From positions 62,001-126,000 of the forward strand of contig JAFTDE010000056.1 of assembly GCA_017454335.1 (NCBI GenBank): DNA of 64,000 bases. The letters run 5' to 3'. Positions 4,672 to 59,128 of the stretch are shown here, piece by piece. Every line of letters starts with the position of its first letter. The stretch's first letter is position 1. The notes beneath the pieces are model-generated. The model was given only the letters and a program-made list of their open reading frames with translations, searched no databases and was not told the origin of the DNA. The position numbers and the translations under genes are program-made. The stretch comes from Bacteroidales bacterium (GTDB lineage Bacteria > Bacteroidota > Bacteroidia > Bacteroidales > UBA932).

Positions 4672-4753
4672 GCGGGTGTGTTGGAATTGGTAGACAACCC
4701 AGACTTAGGATCTGGTGCCTCACGGCGTATGGGTTCGAGTCCCTTCACCCGCA
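4672..4753 (+). tRNA. tRNA-Leu (anticodon TAG)
   Basis: The sequence folds as a class II cloverleaf of 82 nt with a long variable arm. Acceptor arms are GCGGGTG (4672-4678) and CACCCGC (4746-4752), with discriminator A at 4753. The anticodon loop reads CTTAGGA within the CCAGA...TCTGG stem, giving TAG. The T-arm GGTTCGAGTCC is canonical. The 3' CCA is not encoded. Confidence 0.95.
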
Positions 4754-4763
4754 CATGACGAAA

Positions 4764-4795
4764 CAAGCCCCCGGGCGTCAGGTCCCGGGGGCTTG
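4764..4795 (-). terminator. GC-rich hairpin between tRNA-Leu and trpB2
   Basis: A perfect 12-bp stem (4764-4775 with 4784-4795, loop 8 nt) lies between the convergent tRNA-Leu and trpB2 genes. On the minus strand it is followed by TTT only, so it is a weak intrinsic terminator. It may insulate both directions. Confidence 0.6.
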
Positions 4796-4813
4796 CCGTA
4801 TCATCAGGTATCA

Positions 4814-6178: not shown

Positions 6179-6214
6179 ACTACTAAACTATTACGATTAA
6201 CATGAATGGTATTC

Positions 6215-39239: not shown

Positions 39240-40016
39240 ATGAACAAAAAGACTAAGGTACTGATCCTGATCCTGGGAACCCCGTTCGTCATCGGTTTCC
39301 TGCTGGGCCTGCTGGTCGGCGGATCCTGCAGCGCCCGCCGCAGCGGAAAACCCGTTCCGGAAGAGCCCGTTGAAATCCCCGCCGAGGTCGCTGAAACCCC
39401 TGAAATCGAGGACGATGCGGACGGAACCGGCGTCCTGCAGCAGCGCGAGATCATCTACTACACCAAGATGATCCCCTACGCCCGGACCTTCGCCGACATG
39501 AACGAAACCCATCTGGAGAAAGCGCGCGCGATCGGGCTGAAAAGCATTCCGTCCAAACGCGATGACATCGATACGTCCCGGCTGGAACGCATCGATGACG
39601 ACGACTTCCTGATCGTGGACAAACTGCGCTACTCGGTCCCCTACCTGACCCGGGGCGCCGCCGCGGAACTGCACCGGATCGCCCGGGCCTTCAGCGACTC
39701 GCTGGACGCCAAGCATTTTCCGGACTACAAGCTGGTCGTCACCTCGGTCCTGCGCACCGAAGAGGACGTGAACCGCCTGCGCCGCAGCGGCAATCCGAAC
39801 GCCTCCGACAACTCCGCCCACTGCTACGGGACGACCTTCGACATCACCTATACGCGCTACTGGCGCGAACTGGAGACCGAAGAGTTCATGCAGCCTTACG
39901 AACTGACCAAGGTCCTGGCAGAAGTGCTGCGCGACGAGAAGAATGCCGGCCGCATCCTGGTCAAGTACGAGAAACAGGAGCACTGCTTCCACATCACAAG
40001 TTGCCTAACCAACTAG
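39240..40016 (+). CDS. DUF5715 family protein, M15-peptidase-like
   Basis: The 258-residue protein has an N-terminal membrane anchor (VLILILGTPFVIGFLLGLLVGG), an acidic linker and a C-terminal domain that resembles zinc D-Ala-D-Ala carboxypeptidases of family M15. NASDNSAHCYGTTFDITY has the SxHxxGxxxD metal motif and EKQEHCFHIT the ExxxxH motif. VTSVLRTEEDVNRLRRSGNPN precedes the first motif, as in M15. It is probably a periplasmic enzyme on peptidoglycan. Only 6 nt separate it from the aldolase gene, so it may share a transcript with the catabolic operon by chance. Confidence 0.8.
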   Translation: MNKKTKVLILILGTPFVIGFLLGLLVGGSCSARRSGKPVPEEPVEIPAEVAETPEIEDDADGTGVLQQREIIYYTKMIPYARTFADMNETHLEKARAIGLKSIPSKRDDIDTSRLERIDDDDFLIVDKLRYSVPYLTRGAAAELHRIARAFSDSLDAKHFPDYKLVVTSVLRTEEDVNRLRRSGNPNASDNSAHCYGTTFDITYTRYWRELETEEFMQPYELTKVLAEVLRDEKNAGRILVKYEKQEHCFHITSCLTN

Positions 40017-40022
40017 TCCCAT

Positions 40023-40919
40023 ATGAAAAAGCATTTCCAAGGCGTGGTGGTCCCCATGGCCTCCCCCTTCACCCCTGACTGCAAGGCCGACACCGCGGCC
40101 GTCGGGCGCATCATCGCCGCGTTCGCCCGAAACGGCCTGCACGCCCTGGTCCTCGGCACGACCGGCGAATCCGCTTCGGTCGGCGCGGACGAAGCCTTCC
40201 GGATGATGGAAGCCGCCGTTGCTGCCCGCCAGAACGGCCAGCAGATCTACGCCGGACTGGTCGGCAACGACGTCGCCGCCCTGGTCGCCCTGGGCAAACG
40301 CTATGCGTCGCTGGGCGTGGACGCCGTCGTCTCCACCCTGCCCGCCTACTACGCGCTGACCCCGGACCAGATGAAGCGCTTCTACATGACCCTCGCGGAC
40401 AGCATCCCGGCGCCGGTGATGATGTACAACATCAAGGCGACGACCCAGATGTCCATCCCGCTGGAGCTCGTGGAAGAGCTCAGCCACCATCCCAACATCG
40501 CCGGGCTCAAGGATTCCGAGCGCGACGAGGACAAGCAGAACCGCAGCATCGAGCTGTTCCGGGACCGCGAAGACTTCTCCTTCTTCTGCGGATGGGGCGC
40601 CCGCGGCGCACGCAGCCTGCAGCTGGGTGCGGACGGCATCGTCCCCAGCACCGGCAACGTCGTCCCGGAACTCTACGGCGCCCTGTACCGGGCCTTCCTG
40701 CGCGGCGACGATGCCGAAGCGGAACGCCTGCAGGCCCTCACGGACCAGGTCGGCGCCGTGTACCAGAAGGGGCGCACCCTGGGCCAGTCCCTCGCCGCCC
40801 TGAAGGTCCTGATGCAGGAACTCGGGCTGTGCGGCACCACCATGATGCCGCCGCTGAGTGAATACGGTCCCGAAGAATCCCGACAGATCATTTCCAACTT
40901 CAAAGCCTTATCCCTATGA
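40023..40919 (+). CDS. DHDPS/N-acetylneuraminate lyase-family aldolase
   Basis: These TIM-barrel aldolases form a Schiff base with pyruvate and cleave or make 2-keto-3-deoxy acids. The 298-residue protein has VLGTTGESASVG (the GTTGE pyruvate loop, residues ~41-45), the Tyr in MYNIKATTQMS and the Schiff-base Lys in GLKDSERDEDK (residue ~162). The Arg found in true DapA (YNVPxRT) is replaced by Ala-Thr, so lysine synthesis is unlikely. In this operon it fits a retro-aldol step that releases pyruvate from an imported 3-deoxy-2-keto acid. It overlaps the symporter gene by 4 nt. Confidence 0.88.
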   Translation: MKKHFQGVVVPMASPFTPDCKADTAAVGRIIAAFARNGLHALVLGTTGESASVGADEAFRMMEAAVAARQNGQQIYAGLVGNDVAALVALGKRYASLGVDAVVSTLPAYYALTPDQMKRFYMTLADSIPAPVMMYNIKATTQMSIPLELVEELSHHPNIAGLKDSERDEDKQNRSIELFRDREDFSFFCGWGARGARSLQLGADGIVPSTGNVVPELYGALYRAFLRGDDAEAERLQALTDQVGAVYQKGRTLGQSLAALKVLMQELGLCGTTMMPPLSEYGPEESRQIISNFKALSL

Positions 40920-42472
40920 GCCAAGCCGCCATCCACTGGATCGACATCGCCATCATCCTGGTCACGCTGGTCTTCACGATCGGCGTGGGCGTATGGGTCG
41001 CACACCGGAACAAGACCTCCGACGCCTATTTCAAGGGCGGCAAGAAGGCCCCCTCGTGGGTCATCGGCCTGTCCATCTTCGCCACGCTGATCAGCTCGGT
41101 CACCTTCCTTTCCTACCCGGCCGCCGCCTACAAGGGCAACTGGATCCTGCTGGTCCAGGGCCTGATGGTTCCCGTCGTGCTGATCTTCCTGATCTGGGCC
41201 ATCGTGCCGCTGTTCCGCAAGATGATCCGGCTGAGCACCTACGAATACTTCGAGCGCCGTTTCGGCCTCGGGGCGCGCATCTACTCCTCGCTGGCCTTCC
41301 TGCTGACCCACTTCTCCAAGATGGGTACGGTGCTGTACCTGATCTCGCTGGCCCTGGCCAGCATGATGGGCACCGACGCGTTGTGGATCATCATCGTGCT
41401 GGGCGTCGTGATCGTGGCCATCACCTATGTCGGCGGCATGGAAGGCGTGATCTGGATGGATGTCATCCAGGGCCTGCTGCTGATCCTGGGCGGCGTGCTG
41501 TGCGTCGTCGTGCTGGCGGTCAAGCCCGAACAGGGCGTCCTGCAGGTCTTCCACGACGCCGTCGCCATGAAGAAGATCGGATTCGGCCCGTACAATTTCA
41601 GCTTCGCCGAGCTGACCTTCTGGGTCATGGTCATCAACGGCGCATTCTACGCCCTGCAGAAATACGGCACGGACCAGACCATCGTCCAGCGCTACCTGAC
41701 CGCCAAGACCGACCGCGACGCCAAGAAAGCCGCCTACATCGGCGTGGGGCTGAGCGTCCCGATCTGGACCCTGTTCATGCTGGTCGGATCGCTGCTGTTC
41801 GTCTTCTACAACAGCGGCGGCGCATCCCTGCCGGCGGGCATGAAGGCCGAGGAAGTCTTCCCCTATTTCATGATGAACGAACTGCCGGTCGGCATCGCGG
41901 GCCTGGTCATCGCCGCCCTGCTGGCCGCCGCCATCTCCTCGCTGGACGCGGACATGAACTGCCTGTCCGCCATCATCGTCGAGGACTACTACCAGCGTTT
42001 CAAGAAAGACTGCACAGACCGCCAGCGACTGAACATGGGCCGCGCGATGGTGGCCGTCAGCGGCCTGCTGACCGTCGGCGTCGCCGCCCTGTACTATGCC
42101 TGGAACGGCGAGGGCGTGCTGGGCGTCGTCTTTGAACTCTACGCCATCTTCTCCGCCGGCATCGTCGGCATCTTCCTGCTGGGCCTGTTCAGCCGGCGCG
42201 CCAACAAGCAGGGCCTGTACATCGGCATGGCCGCCTGCGTGCTGTTCACGGCCTATGCCGTGCTGACCACGACCAGCATCGAGACCGGTGCGGGCAAGCA
42301 GCTGATCCTGGATCTGGGCAAGTGGAACTTCCCGCACCACAAATACATGCTGGGCGTGTACAGCCACCTGATCGTGCTGGTGGTCGGATACTTCGCCAGC
42401 CTCCTCTTCCCCGCCCCGAAACTGGAACCGGGCCTGACGATCCACGACTACTCCAAAGAAAAGGCCGCCTGA
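40916..42472 (+). CDS. Sodium/solute symporter (SSS family)
   Basis: The 518-residue inner-membrane carrier has about 13 hydrophobic segments. SSS motifs include YFKGGKKAPSWVIGLSIFATLISSVTFLSYPAAAYKGNW near residues 36-75, and AALLAAAISSLDADMNCLSAIIVEDYY near 340-365, where the Ser/Asp of the Na2 site lies. SSS carriers import sugars, sialic acid or carboxylates with sodium. With the aldolase and acid-sugar kinase it probably imports an acidic monosaccharide. It overlaps both neighbours. Confidence 0.9.
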   Translation: MSQAAIHWIDIAIILVTLVFTIGVGVWVAHRNKTSDAYFKGGKKAPSWVIGLSIFATLISSVTFLSYPAAAYKGNWILLVQGLMVPVVLIFLIWAIVPLFRKMIRLSTYEYFERRFGLGARIYSSLAFLLTHFSKMGTVLYLISLALASMMGTDALWIIIVLGVVIVAITYVGGMEGVIWMDVIQGLLLILGGVLCVVVLAVKPEQGVLQVFHDAVAMKKIGFGPYNFSFAELTFWVMVINGAFYALQKYGTDQTIVQRYLTAKTDRDAKKAAYIGVGLSVPIWTLFMLVGSLLFVFYNSGGASLPAGMKAEEVFPYFMMNELPVGIAGLVIAALLAAAISSLDADMNCLSAIIVEDYYQRFKKDCTDRQRLNMGRAMVAVSGLLTVGVAALYYAWNGEGVLGVVFELYAIFSAGIVGIFLLGLFSRRANKQGLYIGMAACVLFTAYAVLTTTSIETGAGKQLILDLGKWNFPHHKYMLGVYSHLIVLVVGYFASLLFPAPKLEPGLTIHDYSKEKAA

Positions 42473-43620
42473 TGAGACCGATCGAAATCGTCACCCCGCG
42501 CCAGCTCGTCCTGGGCAGCGGCAGCATCGTCCGCTGGGCGGAACTGGCCGCCCGGGAAGGATGGAAGCGCATCGCCGTCCTGTCCGTCACCCCGGTCTGG
42601 CCCCTGCTGGAGGAAGCCCTGGCCGAAGGTGAACGGCAGGGACTGGACATCCGGAAAATCGACTATACCCTTCCGGGCGAGCCCACCACGGACTATTTCG
42701 AGCAGCTGCGCGCGCAGGCCGCAGCATTGCAGCCCGACGCCATCCTGGGCGTGGGCGGCGGCAGCGTGCTGGACATCGCCAAACTGCTCGCGGCCCTGAC
42801 GGACCAGGCCGGCCACGTCAGCGCCTTCTTCGGCAAAGGGCTGGTCCCTTCGCGCCGGATCGGGCTGGTCTGCGCCCCGACAACGGCCGGCACGGGCAGC
42901 GAAGTCTCGCCGAACGCCATCCTGCTGGACTCCGCGGACGGTGAGAAGAAAGGCATCATCAGCCCCTTCCTGCTGCCCGACTGCACCCTGATCGACCCCG
43001 CGCTGACCCTGGGCCTGCCGCCGCGCATCACCGCGGAAACGGGCATGGACGCGCTGTGCCACTGCCTGGAAGCCTATATCAACAAGTTCGCGCATCCGCT
43101 GGTCGATACCGCCGCCCTGCGCGGCATCGAACTGGTCGGCAAATACCTGCTGCGCGCCTGCCGAAACGGAGCGGACAGGGAAGCGCGGGAAGCGCTGGCC
43201 ACCGCATCCATGCTGGGCGGGCTGTGCCTGGGTCCGGTCAACACCTGCGGCATCCACGCGCTCTCCTACGGCCTGGCGGGCAAATACCACCTCTCCCACG
43301 GACTGGCGAACGCCCTGCTGGCGGCCGAGGTGATGCGCTTCAACCGCCCGGCCTGCCTGGAACGCTATGCCGCCATCGCCCGCGCACTGGACCTTCCAGT
43401 CAGCGGCGACGCCGGGCACGACGCGGACCTGGCCATCGATTATGTCGCCGCCCTGTCCGCCTCCTGCGGCATTCCGCAGCACCTCGCGGAAGTCGGCATC
43501 CGCGCCGAAGACATCCCGGAAATGGCCGCCATGGCCATGAACGTCACCCGCCTGCTGCGGAACAATCCCCGGGAAATCCAACTTCAGGACGTCATCGAAA
43601 TCTACCAAAACATCTACTGA
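42472..43620 (+). CDS. Iron-containing alcohol dehydrogenase
   Basis: The 382-residue protein is a group III (Fe-ADH) dehydrogenase. The NAD-binding GVGGGSVLDIAKLLAAL is near residues 87-105. PTTAGTGSEVSPNAIL follows, and the metal-binding region is GMDALCHCLEAYINKFAHPLVD, then HALSYGLAGKYHLSHGLANALL (the two His of the HxxxxxxxxxxxH pattern). Its start overlaps the symporter stop (TGATG). In the proposed pathway it would reduce an aldehyde acid, the other aldolase product, to an aldonic acid for the kinase. Confidence 0.9.
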   Translation: MRPIEIVTPRQLVLGSGSIVRWAELAAREGWKRIAVLSVTPVWPLLEEALAEGERQGLDIRKIDYTLPGEPTTDYFEQLRAQAAALQPDAILGVGGGSVLDIAKLLAALTDQAGHVSAFFGKGLVPSRRIGLVCAPTTAGTGSEVSPNAILLDSADGEKKGIISPFLLPDCTLIDPALTLGLPPRITAETGMDALCHCLEAYINKFAHPLVDTAALRGIELVGKYLLRACRNGADREAREALATASMLGGLCLGPVNTCGIHALSYGLAGKYHLSHGLANALLAAEVMRFNRPACLERYAAIARALDLPVSGDAGHDADLAIDYVAALSASCGIPQHLAEVGIRAEDIPEMAAMAMNVTRLLRNNPREIQLQDVIEIYQNIY

Positions 43621-43621
43621 T

Positions 43622-44647
43622 ATGTCTCTTCCGATCGTCAGCATCAGCATGGGTGATCCGGCCGGCATCGGTCCCGAAATCACCGTCATGGCCCTGCAGC
43701 AGCCGTCCGTGTACGCGCAGTGCCGGCCCCTGGTGGTCGGCGACGCCGGCGTGATGGCCCGGGCCGTCGCGCTGCTGGGCGCTCCCCTGCAGATCCACCC
43801 CGTCCATGCCGTCGGCGACGCGCTGTTCAAGTACGGCACCATCGACGTCTATGACCTGCAGAACGTGGACTGCAGCCAGCTGGTCTACGGCCAGGTCAGC
43901 GCCATGTGCGGCCATGCCGCCTTCGAGGCCGTCCGCGTGAACATCGACCTGGCGATGCGGGGCGAGGTGGACGCCACGGTCACGGCCCCGATCAACAAGG
44001 AAGCCATCCACCTGGCCGGTCATGATTTCTCCGGCCACACTGAGATTTACGCCCATTACACGGGCACGCGCAACTATGCCATGCTGCTGGCGGACGAGTC
44101 GCTGCGCGTCATCCACGTCAGCACGCACGTTTCGCTGCGCGAAGCCTGCGACCGGGCCAAGAAGGCGCGCATCCTGGATGTGATCACCCTGCTGGATGGT
44201 GCCTGCCGGCAGTTCGGCATCCCGCAGCCGCGGCTGGCCGTCGCCGGGCTGAACCCGCACAGCGGCGAGAACGGGCTGTTCGGACGCGAGGAGATCGAAG
44301 AGATCATCCCCGCCGTCGAGGAGGCCCGCGCGCGCGGATTCAACGTCGAGGGGCCCGTCCCGCCCGATACCATCTTTGCCAAGGCCGTCCAGGGAAAATA
44401 CGACGGCTGCGTGGCGATGTACCACGACCAGGGGCACATCCCCTTCAAACTGGTCGGATTCAAGTGGAACAACGAAAAACAGAAGATGGACAGCGTCAAG
44501 GGCGTCAACATCACCCTCGGCCTGCCGATCATCCGGACCTCCGTCGACCATGGCACCGCCTTCGAGATCGCCGGCAAGGGCATCGCCAGCCCCGACGCCA
44601 TGCTGATCTCGATCGACTATGCCCTGAAGATGGCCCGGAACCGTTAG
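43622..44647 (+). CDS. pdxA2: PdxA2-type 4-phospho-threonate/erythronate 3-dehydrogenase
   Basis: PdxA2 oxidises 4-phospho-D-threonate or 4-phospho-D-erythronate, and the product decarboxylates to dihydroxyacetone phosphate. The 341-residue protein starts PIVSISMGDPAGIGPEI. It has the PdxA zinc histidines in FSGHTEIYAHY, VSTHVSL and MYHDQGHIPFK, plus TAPINKEAI and GLNPHSGENGLFG. It is next to a DUF1537 kinase rather than the pdxJ/ksgA partners of vitamin B6 PdxA, which is why PdxA2 is preferred. Confidence 0.9.
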   Translation: MSLPIVSISMGDPAGIGPEITVMALQQPSVYAQCRPLVVGDAGVMARAVALLGAPLQIHPVHAVGDALFKYGTIDVYDLQNVDCSQLVYGQVSAMCGHAAFEAVRVNIDLAMRGEVDATVTAPINKEAIHLAGHDFSGHTEIYAHYTGTRNYAMLLADESLRVIHVSTHVSLREACDRAKKARILDVITLLDGACRQFGIPQPRLAVAGLNPHSGENGLFGREEIEEIIPAVEEARARGFNVEGPVPPDTIFAKAVQGKYDGCVAMYHDQGHIPFKLVGFKWNNEKQKMDSVKGVNITLGLPIIRTSVDHGTAFEIAGKGIASPDAMLISIDYALKMARNR

Positions 44648-44651
44648 GAAT

Positions 44652-45785
44652 ATGACAGCCGTAATTGCCGACGACATCACCGGCGCCGCCGAAGTGGCGG
44701 GCGTCTGCCTGCGCAAGGGGATTTCCGTGCGCCTGCTGATTGGCGTACCCGCTCCGGAAGCGCTGGGCGGGGCCGAGGTGCTGGTGCTGGCCACCAACAC
44801 GCGCGCCGGCAGCCGGGAGGAAGCCTGCGCTGCCATGCAGGAAATCGCCCTGCAGCTGTGCCGCGCCGGCATTACGCAGATTTTCAAGAAAACCGATTCC
44901 GCCCTGCGCGGCTGGGTGCTCGCGGAAATGGGCACCCTGGCGCACGCATTCGGACGCCGGAGCCTGCTGATCCAGCCCGCCAATCCGGATACGGGACGCT
45001 CCGTCCGGAACGGCATCTATTACGTCAAGGGGCTTCCCCTTGCGCAGACGCCTTTCCGGGACGATCCGGAGTTTCCGGCCACCACTTCCGACGCCGCGGA
45101 ACTGCTGCGCCTGCGGGGCGCCGGGCTGGACATTCCCTTCCGCATTCCGGACGCACAGGGTCCGGAGGACCTGCGGGAAAGCGCCGCACAATGCCGCCCG
45201 GAGGAACTGCCTGGAGGCAGCGCCGCCTTCTGGCAGGCCTGCCTGGAAAGCTGCGGCCCGCATGCGGCGGCTGCCGGAGCGACAGAAGCCGGCGGCCTGG
45301 ACCTGTCCGGATCGCTGGTGATCTGCGGCAGCGCCCATCCCGCCAGCCATGCCTGGTGCCGGGAGCTCGCCGCAGCGGGTTTCCCCGTCCGGGAAATGCC
45401 GGAAGCGCTCTGCCGCATCGGCCAGGACGGATCGGCCCCGGCCCGGGAATGGACCCGGGAATGCATCGAAGCCTGGCACGAAAACGGGCGCCTGCTGGTC
45501 CGCAGCGCGGAAAAGCAGCTCCCCCTTCCGGACGATCCCGGCCGCCCGGGCAGGCGCCTCGCCGAATGCGCCGCGAGGCTGCTGGCCGCCACCCGGCCCG
45601 CCGGCGTACTGGTCGAAGGCGGCGCGACGGCCTGGGAGATCCTGCAGCGCCTGGGATGGAATGCCTTCACCCCCCTGCGGGAATGGAGCCCGGGCGTCGT
45701 CAGCCTGCGCCTGGACGCCGCTCCCCACTGCACAGTAACCCTGAAACCGGGCAGTTATGCCTGGCCCCATATCAAGCGACTATGA
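44652..45785 (+). CDS. DUF1537 four-carbon acid sugar kinase
   Basis: DUF1537 proteins are kinases for four-carbon sugar acids; the best known are D-threonate and D-erythronate kinases that work with PdxA2. The 377-residue protein has the N-terminal MTAVIADDITGAAEVAGVCLRKG with the substrate-binding DD. FKKTDSALRGWVLAEMG is near residue 75 and NPDTGRSVRNGIYYV near 110. The nucleotide-binding C-terminal half includes VLVEGGATAWEILQRLGW. The N-terminal half is typical; the linker is Ala/Glu-rich. It overlaps the GH28 gene by 4 nt. Confidence 0.9.
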   Translation: MTAVIADDITGAAEVAGVCLRKGISVRLLIGVPAPEALGGAEVLVLATNTRAGSREEACAAMQEIALQLCRAGITQIFKKTDSALRGWVLAEMGTLAHAFGRRSLLIQPANPDTGRSVRNGIYYVKGLPLAQTPFRDDPEFPATTSDAAELLRLRGAGLDIPFRIPDAQGPEDLRESAAQCRPEELPGGSAAFWQACLESCGPHAAAAGATEAGGLDLSGSLVICGSAHPASHAWCRELAAAGFPVREMPEALCRIGQDGSAPAREWTRECIEAWHENGRLLVRSAEKQLPLPDDPGRPGRRLAECAARLLAATRPAGVLVEGGATAWEILQRLGWNAFTPLREWSPGVVSLRLDAAPHCTVTLKPGSYAWPHIKRL

Positions 45786-47932
45786 TGAAGAAATTGATCC
45801 TCCTGCTGATCGGGACCGTCCTGATCCTCCCCGCCCGCGCCGAGACCCTCAACATCCTGAAGATCGGCGGCAAGAACGACGGCAAGACCCTGAACACCAA
45901 GGCGATTGCCAAGGGCATCGAGCGCCTGTCCGCCCAGGGCGGCGGCACGCTGTATTTCCCCGCCGGCACCTACCTGACCGGCCCTATCACGATGAAGAGC
46001 AACATCACCCTGCACATCGACGCCGGCGCAGTGCTGTCCTTCACCGATGATTTCGACGCCTACATGCCCTATGTGGAAATGCGCTTCGAGGGTGTCGTGA
46101 TGAACAGTTTCCATCCGCTGATCGGCGGCTGGGACGCCGAGAACATCTGCCTGAAGGGCGAAGGCATCCTGGAAGGCAACGGGAACGCCTGGTGGCAGGA
46201 GCACTACCGCGTCGAGACCGAGGTCGCCCAGGGCGGGGCCAAGAATCCCACCCGCTGGCAGAAAGCCTTCCTGGAAGCCAACCCCGACCTGACGCTGGAG
46301 CCGCAGTCCGACTGGAAGAACACCCTGGCGCGCCACTTCTTCCGTCCGCCCTTCGTCCAGTTCTTCCGCTGCAGGAACATCCGCATCGAGGGCCTGCATT
46401 TCCAGAATTCCCCGTTCTGGACCATCAATCCGGAATTCTGCGACAACCTCACCATCGATGGCGTCACCATCAACAACCCGCACTCCCCCAACACGGACGG
46501 CATCAATCCCGAATCCTGCCGGAACGTGCACATCTCCAACTGCCACATCAGCGTCGGGGATGACTGCATCACCATCAAGTCCGGCCGTGACCTGCAGGGA
46601 CGGCAGTACGCCACGCCCTGCGAGAACATCACCATCACCAACTGCACCATGCTGAACGGGCACGGCGGCGTGGTGATCGGCAGCGAGATGTCCGGCGACG
46701 TGCGCAAGGTCACCATCAGCAACTGCGTCTTCGACGGGACGAACCGCGGCATCCGCCTGAAATCCTCCCGCGGCCGCGGCGGCATCGTCGAGGAGATCCG
46801 CGTCAACAACATCGTGATGAAGGACATTCAGGACGAAGCCATCATCCTGACCCTGTTCTACGGACGTTCCACGGAAGAGCCCGTCAGCGACCGCACCCCG
46901 ATCTTCCGGAACATCCACATCGCCAACATGACCGGATCGGAGGTCAACTCACTGGGCAGCATCGTCGGCATCCCCGAGATGCCCATCTCCAACATCAGCA
47001 TCTCCAACGTCAACATCGACGCCAAGTCCGGCATGCGCATCCGCGATGCGGAGAACCTGACTTTCAACGACTTCACCCTCAGCACCCAGCAGGGTCCCGC
47101 GCTCAGCATGGAGAATGTGCGGGAAGTGTATATCGACAATGTACGCACGTACAAGCCCAACGCCGACGCGCCCGTGATGAGTTTCCTGAACGTCCGGGAC
47201 GTGCTGATCCGCGGCTGCTTCCCCATGCCGGGCAGCAAGGCCCTCGCCGAATTTGCCGGACCCCGGACCCGGGGCATCGTCCTGATGGACAACCACACGG
47301 AGCGCCTGGCGACGCCGTTCATCATGGGTCCGGACCTGAATGCGGACGCCATCGACGCCAAACTGGAGGAGAAAGCCGCCGGCTGGGTGGCCGGGCTGAA
47401 TCTGGGCGATCCGGCCAAGGAAGCCCGCGTGACCCGGGTCATCGCCACGCACCTGCAGGCCATCTCCGACTGGCATGACAGCCATGCCACCCTGCTGCCC
47501 GCCGGCACCATCAATCCCCGCACCGGGCAGGAGCTGTCCGCCGTCGAACGGCAGGTGGCCGCCGACTCCGCCATGCCCAAAAGCGTCAAGCAGGCCCTGA
47601 TGGACGGGCTGAACGCCGACCTGAGCCCGGAGCAGGTGGAATATATCCTGGACCAGTACACCGTCGGCAAGGTCGAGTTCACGATGAATGGATACCGTTC
47701 CATCGTCCCGGACATCACGCCCGAGGACGAGGCCGTGCTGTACAAGAACCTCAAGGAAGCCCGCCTGCGGGCCGTTGATTACAAGGAGATGCGCGAGATT
47801 TCCGCCATCTTCGAGATCTACAAGACCCTCAACGAACAATATTTCACGAATTCAGGCCGGGACTGGAGAACCATGTACCAGGCCTATTACAACAAAGTCC
47901 AGGCGGAGAAAGCCGCCGCTGCCAAAAACTGA
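45782..47932 (+). CDS. Exported GH28 polygalacturonase-like enzyme fused to DUF3826
   Basis: The 716-residue protein has a signal peptide (residues ~3-20, ending PARAE) and a right-handed beta-helix of family GH28 (~20-470). Catalytic motifs are NTDGINPESC, VGDDCITIKSG, GHGGVVIGSEMSG and RGIRLKSSRGRGG, equivalent to the family NTD, DD, GHG and RxK. From about residue 540 a DUF3826-like domain follows (HLQAISDWHDSH, TINPRTGQELSAVERQV, KQISAIFEIYK-like end EISAIFEIYKTLNEQYF). These are usually separate genes in Bacteroidota pectin loci. The start could also be the next Met at 45785. It fits pectin backbone cleavage outside the inner membrane. Confidence 0.88.
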   Translation: MMKKLILLLIGTVLILPARAETLNILKIGGKNDGKTLNTKAIAKGIERLSAQGGGTLYFPAGTYLTGPITMKSNITLHIDAGAVLSFTDDFDAYMPYVEMRFEGVVMNSFHPLIGGWDAENICLKGEGILEGNGNAWWQEHYRVETEVAQGGAKNPTRWQKAFLEANPDLTLEPQSDWKNTLARHFFRPPFVQFFRCRNIRIEGLHFQNSPFWTINPEFCDNLTIDGVTINNPHSPNTDGINPESCRNVHISNCHISVGDDCITIKSGRDLQGRQYATPCENITITNCTMLNGHGGVVIGSEMSGDVRKVTISNCVFDGTNRGIRLKSSRGRGGIVEEIRVNNIVMKDIQDEAIILTLFYGRSTEEPVSDRTPIFRNIHIANMTGSEVNSLGSIVGIPEMPISNISISNVNIDAKSGMRIRDAENLTFNDFTLSTQQGPALSMENVREVYIDNVRTYKPNADAPVMSFLNVRDVLIRGCFPMPGSKALAEFAGPRTRGIVLMDNHTERLATPFIMGPDLNADAIDAKLEEKAAGWVAGLNLGDPAKEARVTRVIATHLQAISDWHDSHATLLPAGTINPRTGQELSAVERQVAADSAMPKSVKQALMDGLNADLSPEQVEYILDQYTVGKVEFTMNGYRSIVPDITPEDEAVLYKNLKEARLRAVDYKEMREISAIFEIYKTLNEQYFTNSGRDWRTMYQAYYNKVQAEKAAAAKN

Positions 47933-47937
47933 CTGCC

Positions 47938-49857
47938 ATGAAGCACCCGATCCGTCTGTGCGCCGCCCTGGCGCTGACCGCCTCCCTTGTCGCCTGCGCT
48001 CCCTCCAATGGGGAAATCGACTGGCGGAAGGGCATCGTCGAAAGTGAATTCGTCTATGACGAGGCTCCCTTCCGGGAGTGTCATTCCGCCACCATCGCCG
48101 AGACCCCGGCCGGACTGGTCGTCGGGTATTTCGGCGGGACCGTCGAACGCCATCCTGATGTCTGCATCTGGGTCTCCCGCCAGGAAAACGGCGGCTGGGT
48201 GGGCCCGGAACTGGTTGCGGACGGCATCCAGAACGACACCCTCCGCTATCCCTGCTGGAACCCGGTGCTGTACCAGGTTCCCGGCGGCGAACTGATCATG
48301 TTCTACAAGGTCGGTCCCAGCCCTTCGACCTGGAAGGGCTTCCTGAAGCGTTCCTACGACAACGGCCGGAGCTGGGGCGAGGCGGAAGCACTGCCGGATG
48401 ACATCGTCGGTCCGGTCAAGAACAAGCCCGAACTCATCGACGGACGCCTGTTGTGCCCGTCCAGCAAGGAGGGCGGCCCGGGCTGGCGCCTGTACATGGA
48501 GGAGACCTCCGACGGCGGCCGGACCTGGACCAGCACTGCCGCGCTGAACGAAGCGCAGCCCTGGTGGTCCGGCATCCAGCCCAGCATACTCAAGCACAGA
48601 CGGGGCCGCCTGCAGATCCTCTTCCGCACCCGCAACCGCCGCATCGGAACGGCCTGGTCCGACGACCGCGGGCGGACCTGGTCGCAGCTGGACAGCACCA
48701 TGCTGCCCAACAACAATTCGGGACTCGACGCCGTGACCCTCAGGGACGGCCGCCACCTGCTGGTGTACAACCATGTCCTGCCCCCGGGCGAGGAAGTCAA
48801 GGGTCCCCGCACGCCGCTGAACCTGTCCCTGTCCCGCGACGGCGTGCACTGGTACGCCTCCGCCATCCTGGAGAACTCCCCCGTCAGCCAGTACTCCTAT
48901 CCCGCCGTCATCCAGGGCGAAGACGGATACGTCCACGTCGTCTACACCTGGCGCCGGCGCCGCATCAAATACGCCAAGATCGACCCCAAGCAGCTGCAGA
49001 TGATCAAGATAGAAGACATCGAGTGGCCGCGAAATCCGGGGCTGGACGCCCAGCCGGAAGCTCCCATGTTCCAGATTTCGGTCTGCGACTGGATGATGCT
49101 CAAACGCCAGAAGGACGGCGCCGTGACCCTGGCCAGTGAACTGGGATATGACGGACTGGAAGTCGATATGAACTCGCTGGGCGACAACCCCACCTTCCAG
49201 AGCCGCTTCAAGGACAATCCCGAAGCCCTGCAGGCCTTCAAGGCCCTGGCCGAACAGAACGGCATCCGGATTTCGTCCGTGGCCATGTCCGGATTCTATG
49301 CCCAGTCCATCGCCACGCGCGAGAGCTGGATCGAGCCGGTGGCCGACTGCATCGAGGTGATGAAAGGGCTCGGCGTCCAGGTCGCGTTCCTGCCGCTGGG
49401 CGTCAACTCCGACATCAAAGCCCATCCGGAGCTGCGCCCCGCCGTGGTGGAGCGCCTGCGCACCATCGGCCGCATGGCGGAGGAAGCCGGTGTCGTGATC
49501 GGCATCGAGACCTCGCTGGACGCAGCCGGGGACCTGGCGCTGCTGGAAGAGATCGGCAGCCCCGCCATCAAGATCTACTTCAAGTTCCAGAACGCCGTGG
49601 AGAACGGGCGGAACCTGTACAAAGAACTCCGCACCCTCGGCGCGGAGAACATTTGCATGATCCATTGCACGAACACGGACGGCGTGTTGATCGAGAACGA
49701 TCCCCAGCTGGACATGCAGGCGGTCCGTTACGTCCTGGAAGACATCGGCTACCACGGCTGGCTGGTTGTCGAGCGCTCGCGTGACGCCAGCGACGTGCAC
49801 AACGTCCGGTACAACTACGGCGCCAACTGCGCCCACCTGCACAAGGTCTTCAACTAG
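47938..49857 (+). CDS. Lipoprotein fusing a sialidase-like beta-propeller and a TIM-barrel isomerase/epimerase domain
   Basis: This 639-residue lipoprotein (lipobox LVAC, residues ~17-20) has two parts. Residues ~30-365 are a sialidase-like six-bladed propeller related to predicted neuraminidases (COG4692). Asp-box-like blades are seen: SYDNGRSWGE, TSDGGRTWTS, SDDRGRTWSQ and SRDGVHWYAS. Residues ~370-639 are a sugar-phosphate isomerase/epimerase-type TIM barrel: SELGYDGLEVDM, GVVIGIETSLDAAGD, ICMIHCTNTDG and GYHGWLVVERS. A normally cytosolic fold on an exported lipoprotein is odd but occurs in Bacteroidota. The propeller could release a ulosonic acid from pectin, as sialidase-fold hydrolases do. 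Confidence 0.78.
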   Translation: MKHPIRLCAALALTASLVACAPSNGEIDWRKGIVESEFVYDEAPFRECHSATIAETPAGLVVGYFGGTVERHPDVCIWVSRQENGGWVGPELVADGIQNDTLRYPCWNPVLYQVPGGELIMFYKVGPSPSTWKGFLKRSYDNGRSWGEAEALPDDIVGPVKNKPELIDGRLLCPSSKEGGPGWRLYMEETSDGGRTWTSTAALNEAQPWWSGIQPSILKHRRGRLQILFRTRNRRIGTAWSDDRGRTWSQLDSTMLPNNNSGLDAVTLRDGRHLLVYNHVLPPGEEVKGPRTPLNLSLSRDGVHWYASAILENSPVSQYSYPAVIQGEDGYVHVVYTWRRRRIKYAKIDPKQLQMIKIEDIEWPRNPGLDAQPEAPMFQISVCDWMMLKRQKDGAVTLASELGYDGLEVDMNSLGDNPTFQSRFKDNPEALQAFKALAEQNGIRISSVAMSGFYAQSIATRESWIEPVADCIEVMKGLGVQVAFLPLGVNSDIKAHPELRPAVVERLRTIGRMAEEAGVVIGIETSLDAAGDLALLEEIGSPAIKIYFKFQNAVENGRNLYKELRTLGAENICMIHCTNTDGVLIENDPQLDMQAVRYVLEDIGYHGWLVVERSRDASDVHNVRYNYGANCAHLHKVFN

Positions 49858-54313: not shown

Positions 54314-57295
54314 ATGCATCTGTCCCACATCCTGACCCTGCTCGTAACGCTCGTCCTGCCGCCCGCACAAGCCCGGGCGGACGGCATCCAGAACGCCCTG
54401 GAACGTTTCCGCCAGCCCGATGATGCCGCCCGGACCAAGGTCTGGTGGTTCCATGGCGAGACCGAGACCACCCGCGAAGGCATCACGGCCGACCTCGAAG
54501 CCTACAAGGCCGCCGGAATCGGCGGGGTCGTGTACTACGACCAGGTCCACGGCAGCGCGGAGAACGCGCTGGACGCCCTCAGCCAGCCCTGGTGGGAGAT
54601 GCTGAAATTCGCCGCTGCCGAAGCCCGGCGCATCGGGCTGAGCTTCGAGATCAACCTCTCCAACGGCTATGTGGCGGGCGGTCCCTGGATCAGCAAGGAA
54701 TACAGCATGCAGCGTCTGGTGTCAGCGGACACCCTGGTCCGGGGCGGCAGGCATCTCGATACGCCACTGCCCCGCCCCTCGTCCGACGACTGGTCCGCCG
54801 AGGTCGCGGTCCTGGCCTTCCCGGTGGACGCCGCCTGGCGGAGCGTACCCATGGACGGGCAGCTGGACTTCGACGCCCCTTTCAACGCCTGCAGCATCAC
54901 CTACACCGCACCCAAGGGGCCCAAGGCCCGCAGCAGTGCGATGAATTACCCGGACGGACCGGCCGAACGCTTCTACGGCATGATGTACGTCTGGCCGGAC
55001 GCGGCCGGCATCCTGGAATACTCGCAGGACGGGATCCTGTGGCGGCAGGCGGCTGAACTGCCTTCCCCGGACGGGGCCCCCGGACTGGCCCAGCGCACCG
55101 TCGCCTTCCCCCCGGTCAGCGCCCGCCACTGGCGCATCCGCACCGACAAGGCGCTGCGCGACGTGACGCTCTCCTCCCGGCCGCACACCGGCCTCTGGGA
55201 GGTCAAGGCCGCCCTGTTCTCCGACTTCACCGACATCGGTCCGACCCCGGACTACCCCGCCGGCGTCATCGATCCGGCCTCGGTCCTGGACCTCAGCGGG
55301 CAAATGGATAACGACGGAATCCTGCACTGGGACGCCCCGGAGGGCGACTGGTTCATCCTGCGTTTCGCCCGGGAATCCACCCGGGGCGCCACCAAGCACG
55401 GCCGTCCCAATCTCAAGGGCCTGGAATGCGACAAGATGTCGCGCGAGGCGGTCCGCCTGCACTGGGACCACTATGCCGCACGCATCCTGGACACGCTGCG
55501 CACGGCCGGGCTGCTGCCGCAGGGCGTGACCATGGACAGCCACGAGGCCGGTCCGCAGAACTGGACCGCCGGTTTCGAGACGGTCTTTGCCGAGCGGAAC
55601 GGATATGACATCCGTCCCTGGCTGCCCGCCATGGCGGGATACATCGTCCAGAGCCCCGCCGCCACCGAACAATTCCTGCTGACCCTGCGCCAGACCATCA
55701 GCGAAACCATTGCAGACCGGTATTACGGCGAACTGGACCGGCTGTGCCGCGAAGCGGGCGTCGCGTTCACCGCCCAGGCGGCCGGGAACGGGCTGAGCCT
55801 GGTCGCGGACAACATCCAGGTCAAGGGCCGCCCGGGCAAGCCCCAGGGCGAATTCTGGGCCCGCGACGTACACGGCAGCTATGACATCGTCGAGTGCGCC
55901 TCCGCCGCCCACATCTACGGACGTCCGATCGCGTCGGCCGAGGCGTTCACCGATGCCAGCTACGCCCATTCACCGGCCACGCTCAAGGCCCTGGCCGATT
56001 TCGCCTTCGCCAGCCAGATCAACGAATTCGTCGTCTGCGCCTCCGCCTACCAGCCCCGCACGGACATCGTCCCGGGAAACGTGGCCGCCGGACGGCAGTA
56101 CTGCCTGAACCGCAACAACCCCATCTGGCCCTACTCCAGGCCCTTCTGGGACTACCAGGCCCGCTGTGCGAGCATGCTGCGCGAAGGGAAACCCGTCGTG
56201 GACATCCTGGTGTACCTGGGCGACAATCCGCCCGTCAAGACCCTCGCCTACCGCCTGCCGGTCATCCCGGCGGGATACAACTTCGACGTCAGCTCCGCGG
56301 ACGCCCTGCGCGGCGCCCGGGTCCGGGACGGGGAACTGGTGCTGGCCAGCGGCATGCGCTACCGGATGTTCGTCGTCCAGCGCGGCGTGACACTCAGTAT
56401 GGAACAGCAGGCGCGACTGGCCGCCTGGCAGGCCCAGGGCCTGCCCGTTTTCCGCGCCCGGGACGTTTATGAGACGCTTTCCATTCCGTTCGAACCGGAC
56501 CTGAGCATCCAAAGCGCGGGCCTGCTGACGGACTGCGTCCGCTTCTGCCACCGGCGCCTGGAGGATGCAGATGTCTATTTCCTGTACAATCACAGCCCCC
56601 GCCGCACCGAGCAGCCGCTCACGCTGCGCAGTCCCTACCGGAACACCTACCTGCTGGATCCGCTGGACGGCAGCTGCCGCAAACTTGCCGCCGGCAACCG
56701 GGTCGTGCTGGAACTGGATCCGGACGAATCCGCCTTCCTGGTCGCGACGGATGCGGAACTCGCCGAGACGCCCCGGCGGGACAGCGCCGGCGGGAACGGG
56801 AAGAACCTGTTGCCGCAGACGGGATGGACCGTGCGTTTCAACCCGGCCATGGGCGGACCGCAGGAGGCCCTGCAGATGGACCTGGGCGGGGACTGGACGG
56901 AAAGCGAAGACCCGCGGATCCGCTTCTATTCGGGCACCGCGGTCTATGAGAAGGAATTCCGACTGGACAGCGGGTCGCTGCGGCGCCTGCGCCGCGGAGC
57001 GGCAGCCCGGCTGCACCTGGACGGAGCGCAGTGGATGGTGCGTGTGACGGTGAACGGCCGCGAGGCCGGCACAGTCTGGTGCGCGCCCTGGTACCTGGAA
57101 ATCGGGGACCTGCTGCGAGCGGGGCGGAATACCATCCGCCTGGAAGTGACCAATTCGCTGTACAACCGGATGATCGGGGACGCTCCCCTGCCGGAAGAGC
57201 AGCGGTTCACGCACGCCTCGCACCAACTGGTCACGGAGGAAACCCCGCTGGTCCCGTCCGGACTGACCCGGGGCGCAAGCCTGGTGATCGACTAG
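54314..57295 (+). CDS. GH106-like alpha-L-rhamnosidase, exported
   Basis: GH106 enzymes remove rhamnose from pectins and other glycans by inversion. The 993-residue protein has a signal peptide (residues ~1-22, ending ARADG). The (beta/alpha)8 catalytic core carries family features TKVWWFHGETETTREGITADLEAYKAAGIGGVVYYDQ, NLSNGYVAGGPWISKEYSMQRLV and GVTMDSHEAGPQNWTAGFE. A C-terminal beta-sandwich ends the protein (VRVTVNGREAGTVWCAPWYLEIGDLLRAGRN). The D/E in SHEAGPQNW is the likely general acid by family analogy. It ends in CTAG, shared with the transposase stop. Confidence 0.85.
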   Translation: MHLSHILTLLVTLVLPPAQARADGIQNALERFRQPDDAARTKVWWFHGETETTREGITADLEAYKAAGIGGVVYYDQVHGSAENALDALSQPWWEMLKFAAAEARRIGLSFEINLSNGYVAGGPWISKEYSMQRLVSADTLVRGGRHLDTPLPRPSSDDWSAEVAVLAFPVDAAWRSVPMDGQLDFDAPFNACSITYTAPKGPKARSSAMNYPDGPAERFYGMMYVWPDAAGILEYSQDGILWRQAAELPSPDGAPGLAQRTVAFPPVSARHWRIRTDKALRDVTLSSRPHTGLWEVKAALFSDFTDIGPTPDYPAGVIDPASVLDLSGQMDNDGILHWDAPEGDWFILRFARESTRGATKHGRPNLKGLECDKMSREAVRLHWDHYAARILDTLRTAGLLPQGVTMDSHEAGPQNWTAGFETVFAERNGYDIRPWLPAMAGYIVQSPAATEQFLLTLRQTISETIADRYYGELDRLCREAGVAFTAQAAGNGLSLVADNIQVKGRPGKPQGEFWARDVHGSYDIVECASAAHIYGRPIASAEAFTDASYAHSPATLKALADFAFASQINEFVVCASAYQPRTDIVPGNVAAGRQYCLNRNNPIWPYSRPFWDYQARCASMLREGKPVVDILVYLGDNPPVKTLAYRLPVIPAGYNFDVSSADALRGARVRDGELVLASGMRYRMFVVQRGVTLSMEQQARLAAWQAQGLPVFRARDVYETLSIPFEPDLSIQSAGLLTDCVRFCHRRLEDADVYFLYNHSPRRTEQPLTLRSPYRNTYLLDPLDGSCRKLAAGNRVVLELDPDESAFLVATDAELAETPRRDSAGGNGKNLLPQTGWTVRFNPAMGGPQEALQMDLGGDWTESEDPRIRFYSGTAVYEKEFRLDSGSLRRLRRGAAARLHLDGAQWMVRVTVNGREAGTVWCAPWYLEIGDLLRAGRNTIRLEVTNSLYNRMIGDAPLPEEQRFTHASHQLVTEETPLVPSGLTRGASLVID

Positions 57296-58968: not shown

Positions 58969-58972
58969 ATGG

Positions 58973-58980
58973 CAAAGATA
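58973..58980 (-). promoter_or_regulatory. -7 element of the transposase gene
   Basis: TATCTTTG on the minus strand lies 4 nt before the ATG at 58968, so a transcript from it would be leaderless or nearly so. No TTTG at -33. Confidence 0.4.
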
Positions 58981-59128
58981 GGACAATCGGCGAATAAATT
59001 ATATATTTTCTGTTTTTTAATTACAAAAAAATATCGGACGAATCGCCAGTCGACTAATATACAGCATATTTTGCATTTATTATTTATATATAAATTCGCA
59101 TGATGTTTTTTCTCGCGCGCACATGGAC

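What the first reader, a model, noticed from the sequence alone, without database searches (positions are those of the whole stretch)
40023..49857. Candidate catabolic pathway for Dha (3-deoxy-D-lyxo-2-heptulosaric acid) from rhamnogalacturonan II
The operon encodes a pyruvate aldolase, sodium symporter, Fe-alcohol dehydrogenase, PdxA2, DUF1537 kinase, GH28 and a sialidase-fold lipoprotein. Known: aldolases of this family cleave 2-keto-3-deoxy acids; DUF1537 plus PdxA2 turn D-threonate or D-erythronate into dihydroxyacetone phosphate and CO2. Worked out here: retro-aldol of Dha between C3 and C4 gives pyruvate and a four-carbon aldehyde acid. Its C5 and C6 centres are threo, and reduction of the aldehyde gives D-threonate, the known DUF1537/PdxA2 substrate. 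Every gene then has a step, and the two exported enzymes fit pectin. I know of no described Dha catabolic route of this kind.
Basis: partly seen in the sequence, partly recalled or inferred. Interest (0 to 1): 0.88.

Follow-up and report, generated by a model that had tools for sequence, protein, structure and literature searches.

The report
Operon for eating pectin sugar Dha
A tight seven-gene bacterial operon is very probably a missing pathway for burning Dha, a rare acidic sugar of plant pectin, because related operons keep company with the enzyme that cuts Dha out of pectin; the idea is untested at the bench.

Summary
The Dha interpretation survived tests that could have broken it. In 393 genomes of the same order, 12 of 12 with this kinase type carry a BT_1020-type propeller (GH143, the Dha hydrolase, recalled), against 8 of 381 others; genomes with only other DUF1537s carry it in 1 of 7. 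In 9 of 9 named relatives its gene lies 2.6-7.3 kb from the aldolase. The host genome has its own GH143-GH142 protein and an RG-II-methylesterase-like gene, both on other contigs. Against it: 2 of 5 phylum-sample genomes with the module lack GH143; kinase and PdxA fall far below curated D-threonate cut-offs; no assay exists. My searches of the held open-access library found no described Dha catabolic route; two key papers were not held. Best reading: a new pathway built from known enzyme families.

The parts
40023..40919 (+). Class I pyruvate aldolase of the DHDPS/NAL superfamily; proposed Dha aldolase (Dha to pyruvate + D-threuronate)
   Evidence: PF00701 2.4e-42; below the cut-offs of all 7 NCBIfam models matched, DapA, NAL, KDG aldolase and KdgD among them; Y135 and K163 invariant in 22 of 22 full-length module aldolases, R167 in 21 of 22
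40916..42472 (+). Na+/solute symporter (SSF); proposed Dha importer
   Evidence: PF00474 2.5e-41, TIGR00813 218.5 bits over cut-off 184; fused to a methylesterase-like (GCE) domain in L014-L017; 128 of 518 positions invariant in 20 sequences
42472..43620 (+). Fe-containing alcohol dehydrogenase; proposed D-threuronate reductase giving D-threonate
   Evidence: PF25137/PF00465; all 17 NCBIfam matches below cut-off, sulfoacetaldehyde reductase, lactaldehyde reductase and 4-hydroxybutyrate dehydrogenase among the best; D193, H197, H262, H276 invariant in 21 of 21
43622..44647 (+). PdxA-type dehydrogenase; proposed 4-phospho-D-threonate dehydrogenase/decarboxylase giving DHAP + CO2
   Evidence: PF04166 1.9e-108; passes TIGR00557 pdxA (352.1 over 290.35); best model is NF002992 pdxA (398.5, cut-off 470), D-threonate-4-P dehydrogenase model 345.8 (cut-off 583)
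44652..45785 (+). DUF1537 kinase (SBD_N + NBD_C); proposed D-threonate 4-kinase
   Evidence: PF07005 1e-32, PF17042 5.2e-10; best NCBIfam match D-threonate kinase 94.5 bits (cut-off 450), then 3-oxo-tetronate kinase 73 (cut-off 350)
45782..47932 (+). Exported GH28 fused to DUF3826; likely RG-II backbone galacturonidase (BT1018-like by locus position, inferred)
   Evidence: PF00295 5.9e-44, PF12875 1e-55; matched by RG-II-type-locus GH28s at 1e-185 (L091) and 3e-170 (L094), whereas the other two GH28s found near the window in this genome reach 5e-58 and 3e-37 against it
47938..49857 (+). Lipoprotein: sialidase-like BNR_2 propeller fused to an AP_endonuc_2 TIM barrel; candidate side-chain C (Kdo) hydrolase, TIM role open
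   Evidence: PF13088 1.4e-80, PF01261 1.3e-24; propeller and TIM are separate genes in Spirosoma/Fibrella; propeller fused to GH78 in L096, L107, L116
54314..57295 (+). GH106 alpha-L-rhamnosidase 4.5 kb downstream; associated context, not part of the operon
   Evidence: PF17132 7.6e-130; PDB 5mqm/5mqn and 5mwk at 1.2e-97 and 3.2e-97

Best explanation
[quoted passage not shown] Proposed route: a GH142 enzyme removes the terminal L-arabinose and a GH143 (BT_1020-type) enzyme, both encoded elsewhere in this genome as one protein, releases Dha (these two activities are recalled); the Na+ symporter imports it; the DHDPS-family aldolase cleaves C3-C4 to pyruvate and D-threuronate; the Fe-dehydrogenase reduces the aldehyde to D-threonate; the DUF1537 kinase makes 4-phospho-D-threonate; the PdxA-type enzyme oxidises C3 and decarboxylates to DHAP + CO2. 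Net: one C7 aldarate gives pyruvate + DHAP + CO2. Shown here: gene content, conserved neighbourhood, conserved presumed catalytic residues, co-occurrence with the GH143-type gene. Inferred: every substrate and every step.
For: Order sample n=393: 12 of 12 module-type kinase genomes have PF24067 at E below 1e-80, against 8 of 381 others (Fisher 5e-18, not corrected for phylogeny). Control: 7 genomes with only other DUF1537s, 1 with strong PF24067. Phylum sample n=395: 3 of 5 against 18 of 390, p 0.0012. Named loci: 9 of 9 have PF24067-type genes 2.6-7.3 kb from the aldolase. L104 is one array: DUF6298-GH143-GH142-aldolase-symporter-ADH-PdxA-kinase-GH28-GCE/methylesterase-like-apiosidase/DUF3826-propeller/TIM. 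The symporter is fused to the same GCE/methylesterase-like domain in L014-L017 (PMC7939467 section 8 reports symporter fusions of the BT1017 domain). Own genome: GH143-GH142 protein matches PDB 5mqr over residues 75-1147, 1459.8 bits; methylesterase-like protein matches 6goc, 1.5e-93. The chemistry gives each of the five core genes one step.
Against: No enzyme assayed; no growth or expression data. G074 and G176 carry adh-ald-pdxA-kin with no match for GH143, apiosidase or the propeller protein, and only a faint GH142 match in G176 (21% identity, 3.5e-6). 8 order-level genomes have strong PF24067 without the module, including L094 and L101 with B. theta-like gene order. In 9 of the 12 order-level module genomes, the window's own among them, the PF24067 gene is on another contig. 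Kinase and PdxA are far below the D-threonate cut-offs, and the PdxA scores higher on a general pdxA model than on the D-threonate one. Co-occurrence marks RG-II use as a whole; singling out Dha rests on chemistry and on the GH143/GH142 neighbours. The authors of PMC7939467 read the varied fusions of the BT1017 domain as a sign that it may act on other substrates than methylated pectin. The aldolase tree does not resolve the module aldolases from the L117 paralogue.
Confidence: 0.72

Rival explanations
1. The operon serves Kdo from RG-II side chain C: the aldolase cleaves Kdo to pyruvate and D-arabinose, and the other genes handle something else.
For: Kdo and Dha share C4-C6 configuration (recalled), so one aldolase might take both; the propeller domain of the operon is fused to GH78 in L096, L107, L116, pointing to the Rha-Kdo chain.
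Against: D-arabinose is not an acid; a DUF1537 kinase and a PdxA-type oxidative decarboxylase would have no step. A separate symporter-aldolase pair sits in the same locus as the propeller and TIM genes in L117 and is a better Kdo candidate.
Confidence: 0.08
2. The substrate is aceric acid: ADH reduces it, the kinase phosphorylates C1, the PdxA-type enzyme oxidises C2 and decarboxylates C3 to a 5-deoxypentulose 1-phosphate.
For: Chemically possible on paper (my derivation); aceric acid is an RG-II sugar, so co-occurrence with RG-II genes would look the same.
Against: The next step would need a DHAP aldolase, whereas the operon's aldolase is of the pyruvate class (PF00701) with invariant presumed Schiff-base Lys and Tyr. 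Direct neighbours in L010, L011, L012, L023 and L104 include the side-chain D pair GH142/GH143.
Confidence: 0.06
3. Ordinary D-threonate or D-erythronate catabolism (kinase + PdxA2) placed next to an unrelated aldolase and dehydrogenase.
For: Kinase and PdxA families match that module; kinase-PdxA pairs without a module-type aldolase or ADH nearby exist (L031, L109).
Against: Aldolase and ADH stay with the kinase and PdxA in both gene orders seen, across several families. Genomes with only other-type DUF1537 proteins lack strong PF24067 in 6 of 7 (order sample) and in 2 of 2 (G203, G352; phylum sample).
Confidence: 0.08
4. The module acts on another 2-keto-3-deoxyaldarate, with RG-II genes linked only through a general pectin lifestyle.
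For: G074 and G176 have the module without matches to the RG-II-type genes tested.
Against: Strong PF24067 is rare (20 of 393; 21 of 395), yet sits near the module in 9 of 9 named loci; Dha also occurs in green-algal scales (PMC10762512 passages), which could explain the exceptions.
Confidence: 0.06

Closest known systems
DUF1537 kinase + PdxA2 module for four-carbon acid sugars (DtnK/PdxA2, DenK; Zhang et al. 2016, recalled; not held)
   Same: A DUF1537 kinase gene next to a PdxA-family gene, expected to end in DHAP + CO2
   Different: Here kept together with a pyruvate aldolase, an Fe-ADH and usually an SSF symporter; kinase and PdxA far below the D-threonate curated cut-offs
RG-II utilisation loci of Bacteroides thetaiotaomicron (BT1012-BT1021 region; partly seen in PMC7939467 passages, otherwise recalled)
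   Same: GH43, GH143-GH142, GH78, GH28, methylesterase-like, DUF3826 and apiosidase homologues surround the module in various relatives
   Different: The B. theta-like loci seen here (L094, L101) lack the aldolase-kinase module; the module adds what happens after Dha is released
Sialic acid catabolism with N-acetylneuraminate lyase (NanA) and an SSF sialate transporter (recalled)
   Same: SSF import of a 2-keto-3-deoxy acid, then a DHDPS/NAL-family retro-aldol to pyruvate
   Different: Aldolase 81.6 and 72.3 bits against NAL models with cut-offs 281 and 382; a four-carbon acid aldehyde is expected instead of ManNAc
KDG and 5-keto-4-deoxyglucarate routes of pectin catabolism (recalled)
   Same: 2-keto-3-deoxy acids handled by DHDPS-family enzymes
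   Different: They do not call for a C4-acid kinase or a PdxA-type enzyme; aldolase below the KDG aldolase and KdgD cut-offs

Membership tests
DUF1537/PdxA2 D-threonate pathway | DUF1537 kinase gene adjacent to a PdxA-family gene | tested here: met
   43622-44647 and 44652-45785, 4 bases apart
DUF1537/PdxA2 D-threonate pathway | Kinase passes the curated D-threonate kinase cut-off (NF047819, 450 bits) | tested here: not met
   94.5 bits, best stretch residues 4-155
DUF1537/PdxA2 D-threonate pathway | PdxA passes the curated D-threonate-4-phosphate dehydrogenase cut-off (NF002891, 583 bits) | tested here: not met
   345.8 bits; it passes the general TIGR00557 pdxA cut-off (352.1 against 290.35) and scores 398.5 on NF002992 pdxA (cut-off 470)
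DUF1537/PdxA2 D-threonate pathway | Kinase phosphorylates D-threonate | not testable with these tools
   Needs an assay
DHDPS/NAL class I pyruvate aldolases | Family profile and Schiff-base Lys with catalytic Tyr | tested here: met
   PF00701 2.4e-42; K163 and Y135 invariant in 22 of 22; roles of these residues recalled from DapA/NAL
N-acetylneuraminate lyase, DapA, KDG aldolase or KdgD equivalogs | Passes the curated cut-off | tested here: not met
   All 7 NCBIfam matches below cut-off
RG-II utilisation gene set | Genome carries a BT_1020-type GH143-GH142 enzyme | tested here: met
   G000:C3, PF24067 8.4e-114, 1459.8 bits to PDB 5mqr; another contig than the operon
RG-II utilisation gene set | Operon beside RG-II enzymes in the same genome | tested here: inconclusive
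   GH28-DUF3826 in the operon, GH106 4.5 kb and a GH78 of RG-II-locus type about 15 kb downstream; GH143, the methylesterase-like gene and a weakly apiosidase-like gene (5.7e-14) lie on other contigs of a 78.8% complete MAG
Sialidase GH33 (propeller domain) | Sialidase-like propeller profile | tested here: met
   BNR_2 1.4e-80; a profile of 9 propellers reaches PDB sialidases at 4.2e-8
Sialidase GH33 (propeller domain) | Arginine triad, Tyr/Glu nucleophile, Asp acid | not tested

The most novel reading that the evidence does not exclude
A dedicated, complete catabolic pathway for Dha, not described in anything my searches found: SSF uptake, retro-aldol to pyruvate + D-threuronate, reduction to D-threonate, phosphorylation and oxidative decarboxylation to DHAP. 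It occurs in RG-II-degrading Bacteroidota beyond one order, and in a few lineages without the RG-II enzymes tested that may take Dha from algal scales.
Probability: 0.65. Interest if true: 0.8.

Novelty: new variant of a known kind. Interest (0 to 1): 0.72.

Why it matters
RG-II occurs in all plants in a highly conserved form (PMC12168206, abstract opening), and enzymes that take it apart are known (recalled; PMC7939467 passages), but the fate of its odd sugars after release is not described in anything my searches found. Genes with predicted steps make the fate of Dha directly testable with four small enzymes. A Dha aldolase would also be a tool: PMC12168206 (passages) notes the lack of a Dha standard and that its nucleotide form is undefined; run in reverse, the aldolase might make Dha. 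The module is a genomic marker that would split RG-II degraders into those predicted to use Dha and those, such as G238 and G394 with B. theta-like RG-II loci, in which the kinase search found no module.

Tried and rejected
Rejected: the propeller protein as the Dha hydrolase (L013-L017, L010 with L084, L104 and L117 carry both it and GH143). Rejected: apiose as substrate (the beta carbon of apionate is a tertiary alcohol, so PdxA chemistry cannot work; my derivation). Rejected: any DUF1537 as marker (genomes with only other DUF1537s have strong PF24067 in 1 of 7; one more, G417, has a weak match of 7.5e-5).

Led nowhere: structure prediction of the aldolase and of the propeller/TIM protein (jobs interrupted), so a role of Arg167 in binding the far carboxylate and the sialidase Arg triad stay untested. 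Promoter/terminator scan: 1 promoter-like and 3 terminator-like hits, below the shuffle means of 1.7 and 8.1. NCBIfam gives no RG-II-specific name to 10 relatives' proteins scanned. The aldolase tree (28 rows) left one origin of the 22 module aldolases neither shown nor ruled out (2 changes needed). Ndeh et al. 2017 and Zhang et al. 2016 are not held; that GH143 is the Dha hydrolase, GH142 the matching arabinofuranosidase, that 5mqr is BT_1020, 5mqm/5mwk an RG-II rhamnosidase and 5msy an apiosidase, and the DtnK/PdxA2 chemistry, are recalled. PMC7922503 passages say that GH137-139, 142 and 143 co-occur and may work together in RG-II debranching.

Dropped before counts: 5 of 14 loci (L018-L022, 26-30% identity, no module found); 4 weak PF24067 matches in the order sample (G411, G417, G595, G690; E 1.6e-6 to 5.3e-4, three of them labelled over cut-off) and 4 in the phylum sample (G118, G134, G214, G297; one labelled over cut-off); G576 from the 13 order-level kinase hits, because its neighbours are of another type (L109). 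With the weak ones kept, the order table is 12 of 12 against 12 of 381. Of the 12, 9 show all five core genes (G000, G409, G466, G509, G512, G608, G611, G619, G755); 3 (G681, G699, G782) show them in part, on stretches that end at a contig end. L011 and G509 appear to be the same genome. 5 of the 9 named loci are Spirosoma/Fibrella, so they are not independent. Flank genes: 30 chosen ORFs went to Pfam; the rest were labelled only by likeness to chosen reference proteins.
Full report
WHAT IS THERE. Two domains were missed: DUF3826 at the end of the GH28 protein and an AP_endonuc_2 TIM barrel at the end of the lipoprotein. The gene upstream (39240-40016, DUF5715) ends 6 bases before the aldolase. 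No NCBIfam cut-off is met by the aldolase, ADH or kinase; the PdxA passes only the general TIGR00557 pdxA model. D193, H197, H262, H276 of the ADH (21 of 21) and Y135 and K163 of the aldolase (22 of 22) are invariant in module relatives (roles recalled).

CONSERVED MODULE. One aldolase scan of the genome collection, which reaches close relatives only, gave 14 loci; 9 are true relatives (44-74% identity) and 9 of 9 carry adh, ald, pdxA and kin as neighbours, with sss seen in 8 (L013 ends at a contig end). Two gene orders recur: ald-sss-adh-pdxA-kin (window, L010, L011, L012, L023, L104, L108, L110, L111, L114) and adh-ald-pdxA-kin, followed by sss where the stretch shows it (Spirosoma/Fibrella L013-L017, L024-L027, L105, L106); L112, L113 and L073 are fragments. 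In Spirosoma/Fibrella the propeller gene (5 of 5), DUF3826 (4 of 5) and TIM (3 of 5) are separate genes nearby; in the window they are parts of fusions, which ties these exported domains to the catabolic genes.

LINK TO DHA RELEASE. PF24067 (BT_1020-like N-terminal propeller; GH143, the Dha hydrolase, recalled) was found beside the module and then tested. In 393 genomes of the order, the window kinase hits 13; by neighbours 12 are this module and 1 (G576, L109) is another kinase-PdxA pair. Strong PF24067 matches (E below 1e-80) occur in 20 of 393: 12 of 12 module genomes and 8 of 381 others (Fisher 5e-18; not phylogeny-corrected; the 12 lie in 8 families). Control: PF07005 finds 19 DUF1537 genomes; of the 7 without the module kinase 1 has strong PF24067. 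In the phylum sample (395) 5 of 7 kinase hits are the module; 3 of 5 have PF24067 against 18 of 390 others. Physical linkage: 9 of 9 named loci have the gene 2.6-7.3 kb from the aldolase, L104 1.7 kb; G466 (about 16 kb from the kinase) and G031 (about 9 kb) are further cases. In 9 of the 12 order-level genomes it is on another contig, the window's own among them; several of those contigs are short.

RG-II CONTEXT. L104 holds DUF6298-GH143-GH142-ald-sss-adh-pdxA-kin-GH28-GCE-apiosidase/DUF3826-propeller/TIM in one array. GH142-type genes lie beside the module in 4 of the 9 named loci (L010, L011, L012, L023). The GCE genes (Pfam names them after a glucuronyl esterase) are like the window genome's own copy L121, which matches PDB 6goc at 1.5e-93; that 6goc is BT1017 is inferred from its DUF3826 name and PMC7939467. 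PMC7939467 (passages and section 8) says that BT1017 is the RG-II methylesterase with a C-terminal DUF3826, and that its catalytic domain occurs joined to GH28, solute symporter and xylose-isomerase TIM families; its authors take this to mean that the domain may serve other substrates too. The module symporter of L014-L017 is such a fusion. The host genome has a GH143-GH142 protein on C3, the methylesterase-like gene on C59, a GH28 of RG-II-locus type in the operon, a GH78 of that type about 15 kb downstream (L029) and a GH106 in the window. So it has much of an RG-II gene set, scattered.

CHEMISTRY. Dha is C7: COOH-CO-CH2-C4(L)-C5(L)-C6(R)-COOH in Fischer terms. Retro-aldol at C3-C4 gives pyruvate and OHC-C(L)-C(R)-COOH; reducing the aldehyde and reading from the carboxyl end gives L,R = D-threonate. 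D-threonate kinases and D-threonate-4-phosphate dehydrogenases exist as curated families, and DtnK is described as a D-threonate kinase in PMC10971088 (passages). The ADH's nearest curated families include small-aldehyde enzymes such as sulfoacetaldehyde reductase, lactaldehyde reductase and 4-hydroxybutyrate dehydrogenase. Of the RG-II sugars that I worked through (Dha, Kdo, aceric acid, apiose), only Dha gives all five core genes a step.

SIDE FINDINGS. The propeller domain is fused to GH78 rhamnosidase in L096, L107 and L116. Since BT_1020 fuses the two side-chain D enzymes (recalled), a GH78-propeller fusion suggests the two side-chain C enzymes (Rha, then Kdo); I propose the propeller as a Kdo hydrolase (inference). 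In L117 a second symporter-aldolase pair shares a locus with TIM, GCE, propeller, DUF3826, GH142 and GH143 and is a Kdo candidate.

AGAINST. G074 and G176 carry adh-ald-pdxA-kin (sss seen only in G074) with no match for GH143, apiosidase or propeller and at most a faint GH142 match (one search warns that its empty answer without a positive control shows nothing). 8 order-level genomes have strong PF24067 without the module, so Dha may be wasted or used otherwise there. Scores are far from the D-threonate models, and the PdxA prefers a general pdxA model. Co-occurrence alone cannot tell Dha from Kdo or aceric acid.

LITERATURE. Searches of the held library: rhamnogalacturonan II + DUF1537, 0 papers; at least 2 of heptulosaric acid, RG-II and aldolase, 45 papers, 20 seen as listing; DUF1537 + threonate, 8 papers; at least 3 of RG-II, Bacteroides, heptulosaric and catabol-, 20 papers as listing; PdxA2 + threonate, 1 paper, on growth temperature; GH143/GH142/rhamnogalacturonan, 17 papers; heptulosaric + aldolase, 2 papers, one looked at in passages (PMC6353982: heptulosaric acid appears once, in a list of RG-II sugars), the other (PMC6854810) seen only in the listing; rhamnogalacturonan II + threonate + kinase, 2 plant ascorbate papers seen only as listings; a five-term search, 0. 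I found no described Dha catabolic route there; subscription papers are mostly not held, so this is weak evidence of absence.

VERDICT. A real operon and a well-supported, untested pathway: a new variant built from known enzyme families.

Noticed in passing
L117:665-3145: A second symporter-aldolase pair (aldolase 9e-37 to the window's) in one locus with TIM, GCE/methylesterase-like, propeller, DUF3826, GH142 and GH143; candidate Kdo uptake and aldolase.
   Followed up: partly
L096:504-4328, L107:16799-19900, L116:12685-16485: The propeller domain of the window's lipoprotein is fused to GH78 rhamnosidase, hinting at a Kdo hydrolase.
   Followed up: partly
L014:13431-16424, L015:13373-16339, L016:13516-16491, L017:13267-16245: The module's Na+ symporter is fused to a GCE/methylesterase-like (BT1017-type) domain in Spirosoma and Fibrella.
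   Followed up: partly
G000:C57:5517-6248 (L001, L028): A second, different DUF1537 protein in the same genome (8.8e-42), with no window-type PdxA or aldolase found in L028.
   Followed up: no
L109:4642-10354: G576 has strong PF24067 and another kinase-PdxA pair, with a putative isopropylmalate-dehydrogenase-like gene near it (my reading of the translation); possibly a different Dha or C4-acid route.
   Followed up: no
L024:2148-6131: In G074 the module follows FGE-sulfatase/BNR_2 and sulfatase genes, suggesting a sulfated, perhaps algal, glycan.
   Followed up: no
window 39240-40016: A DUF5715 gene (2.8e-50) ends 6 bases before the aldolase and may be co-transcribed; role unknown.
   Followed up: no
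window 57292-58986, 29259-30299, 557-2434, 4715-6205: Long ORFs with no Pfam match at 0.001; some may be false frames in this GC-rich genome.
   Followed up: no
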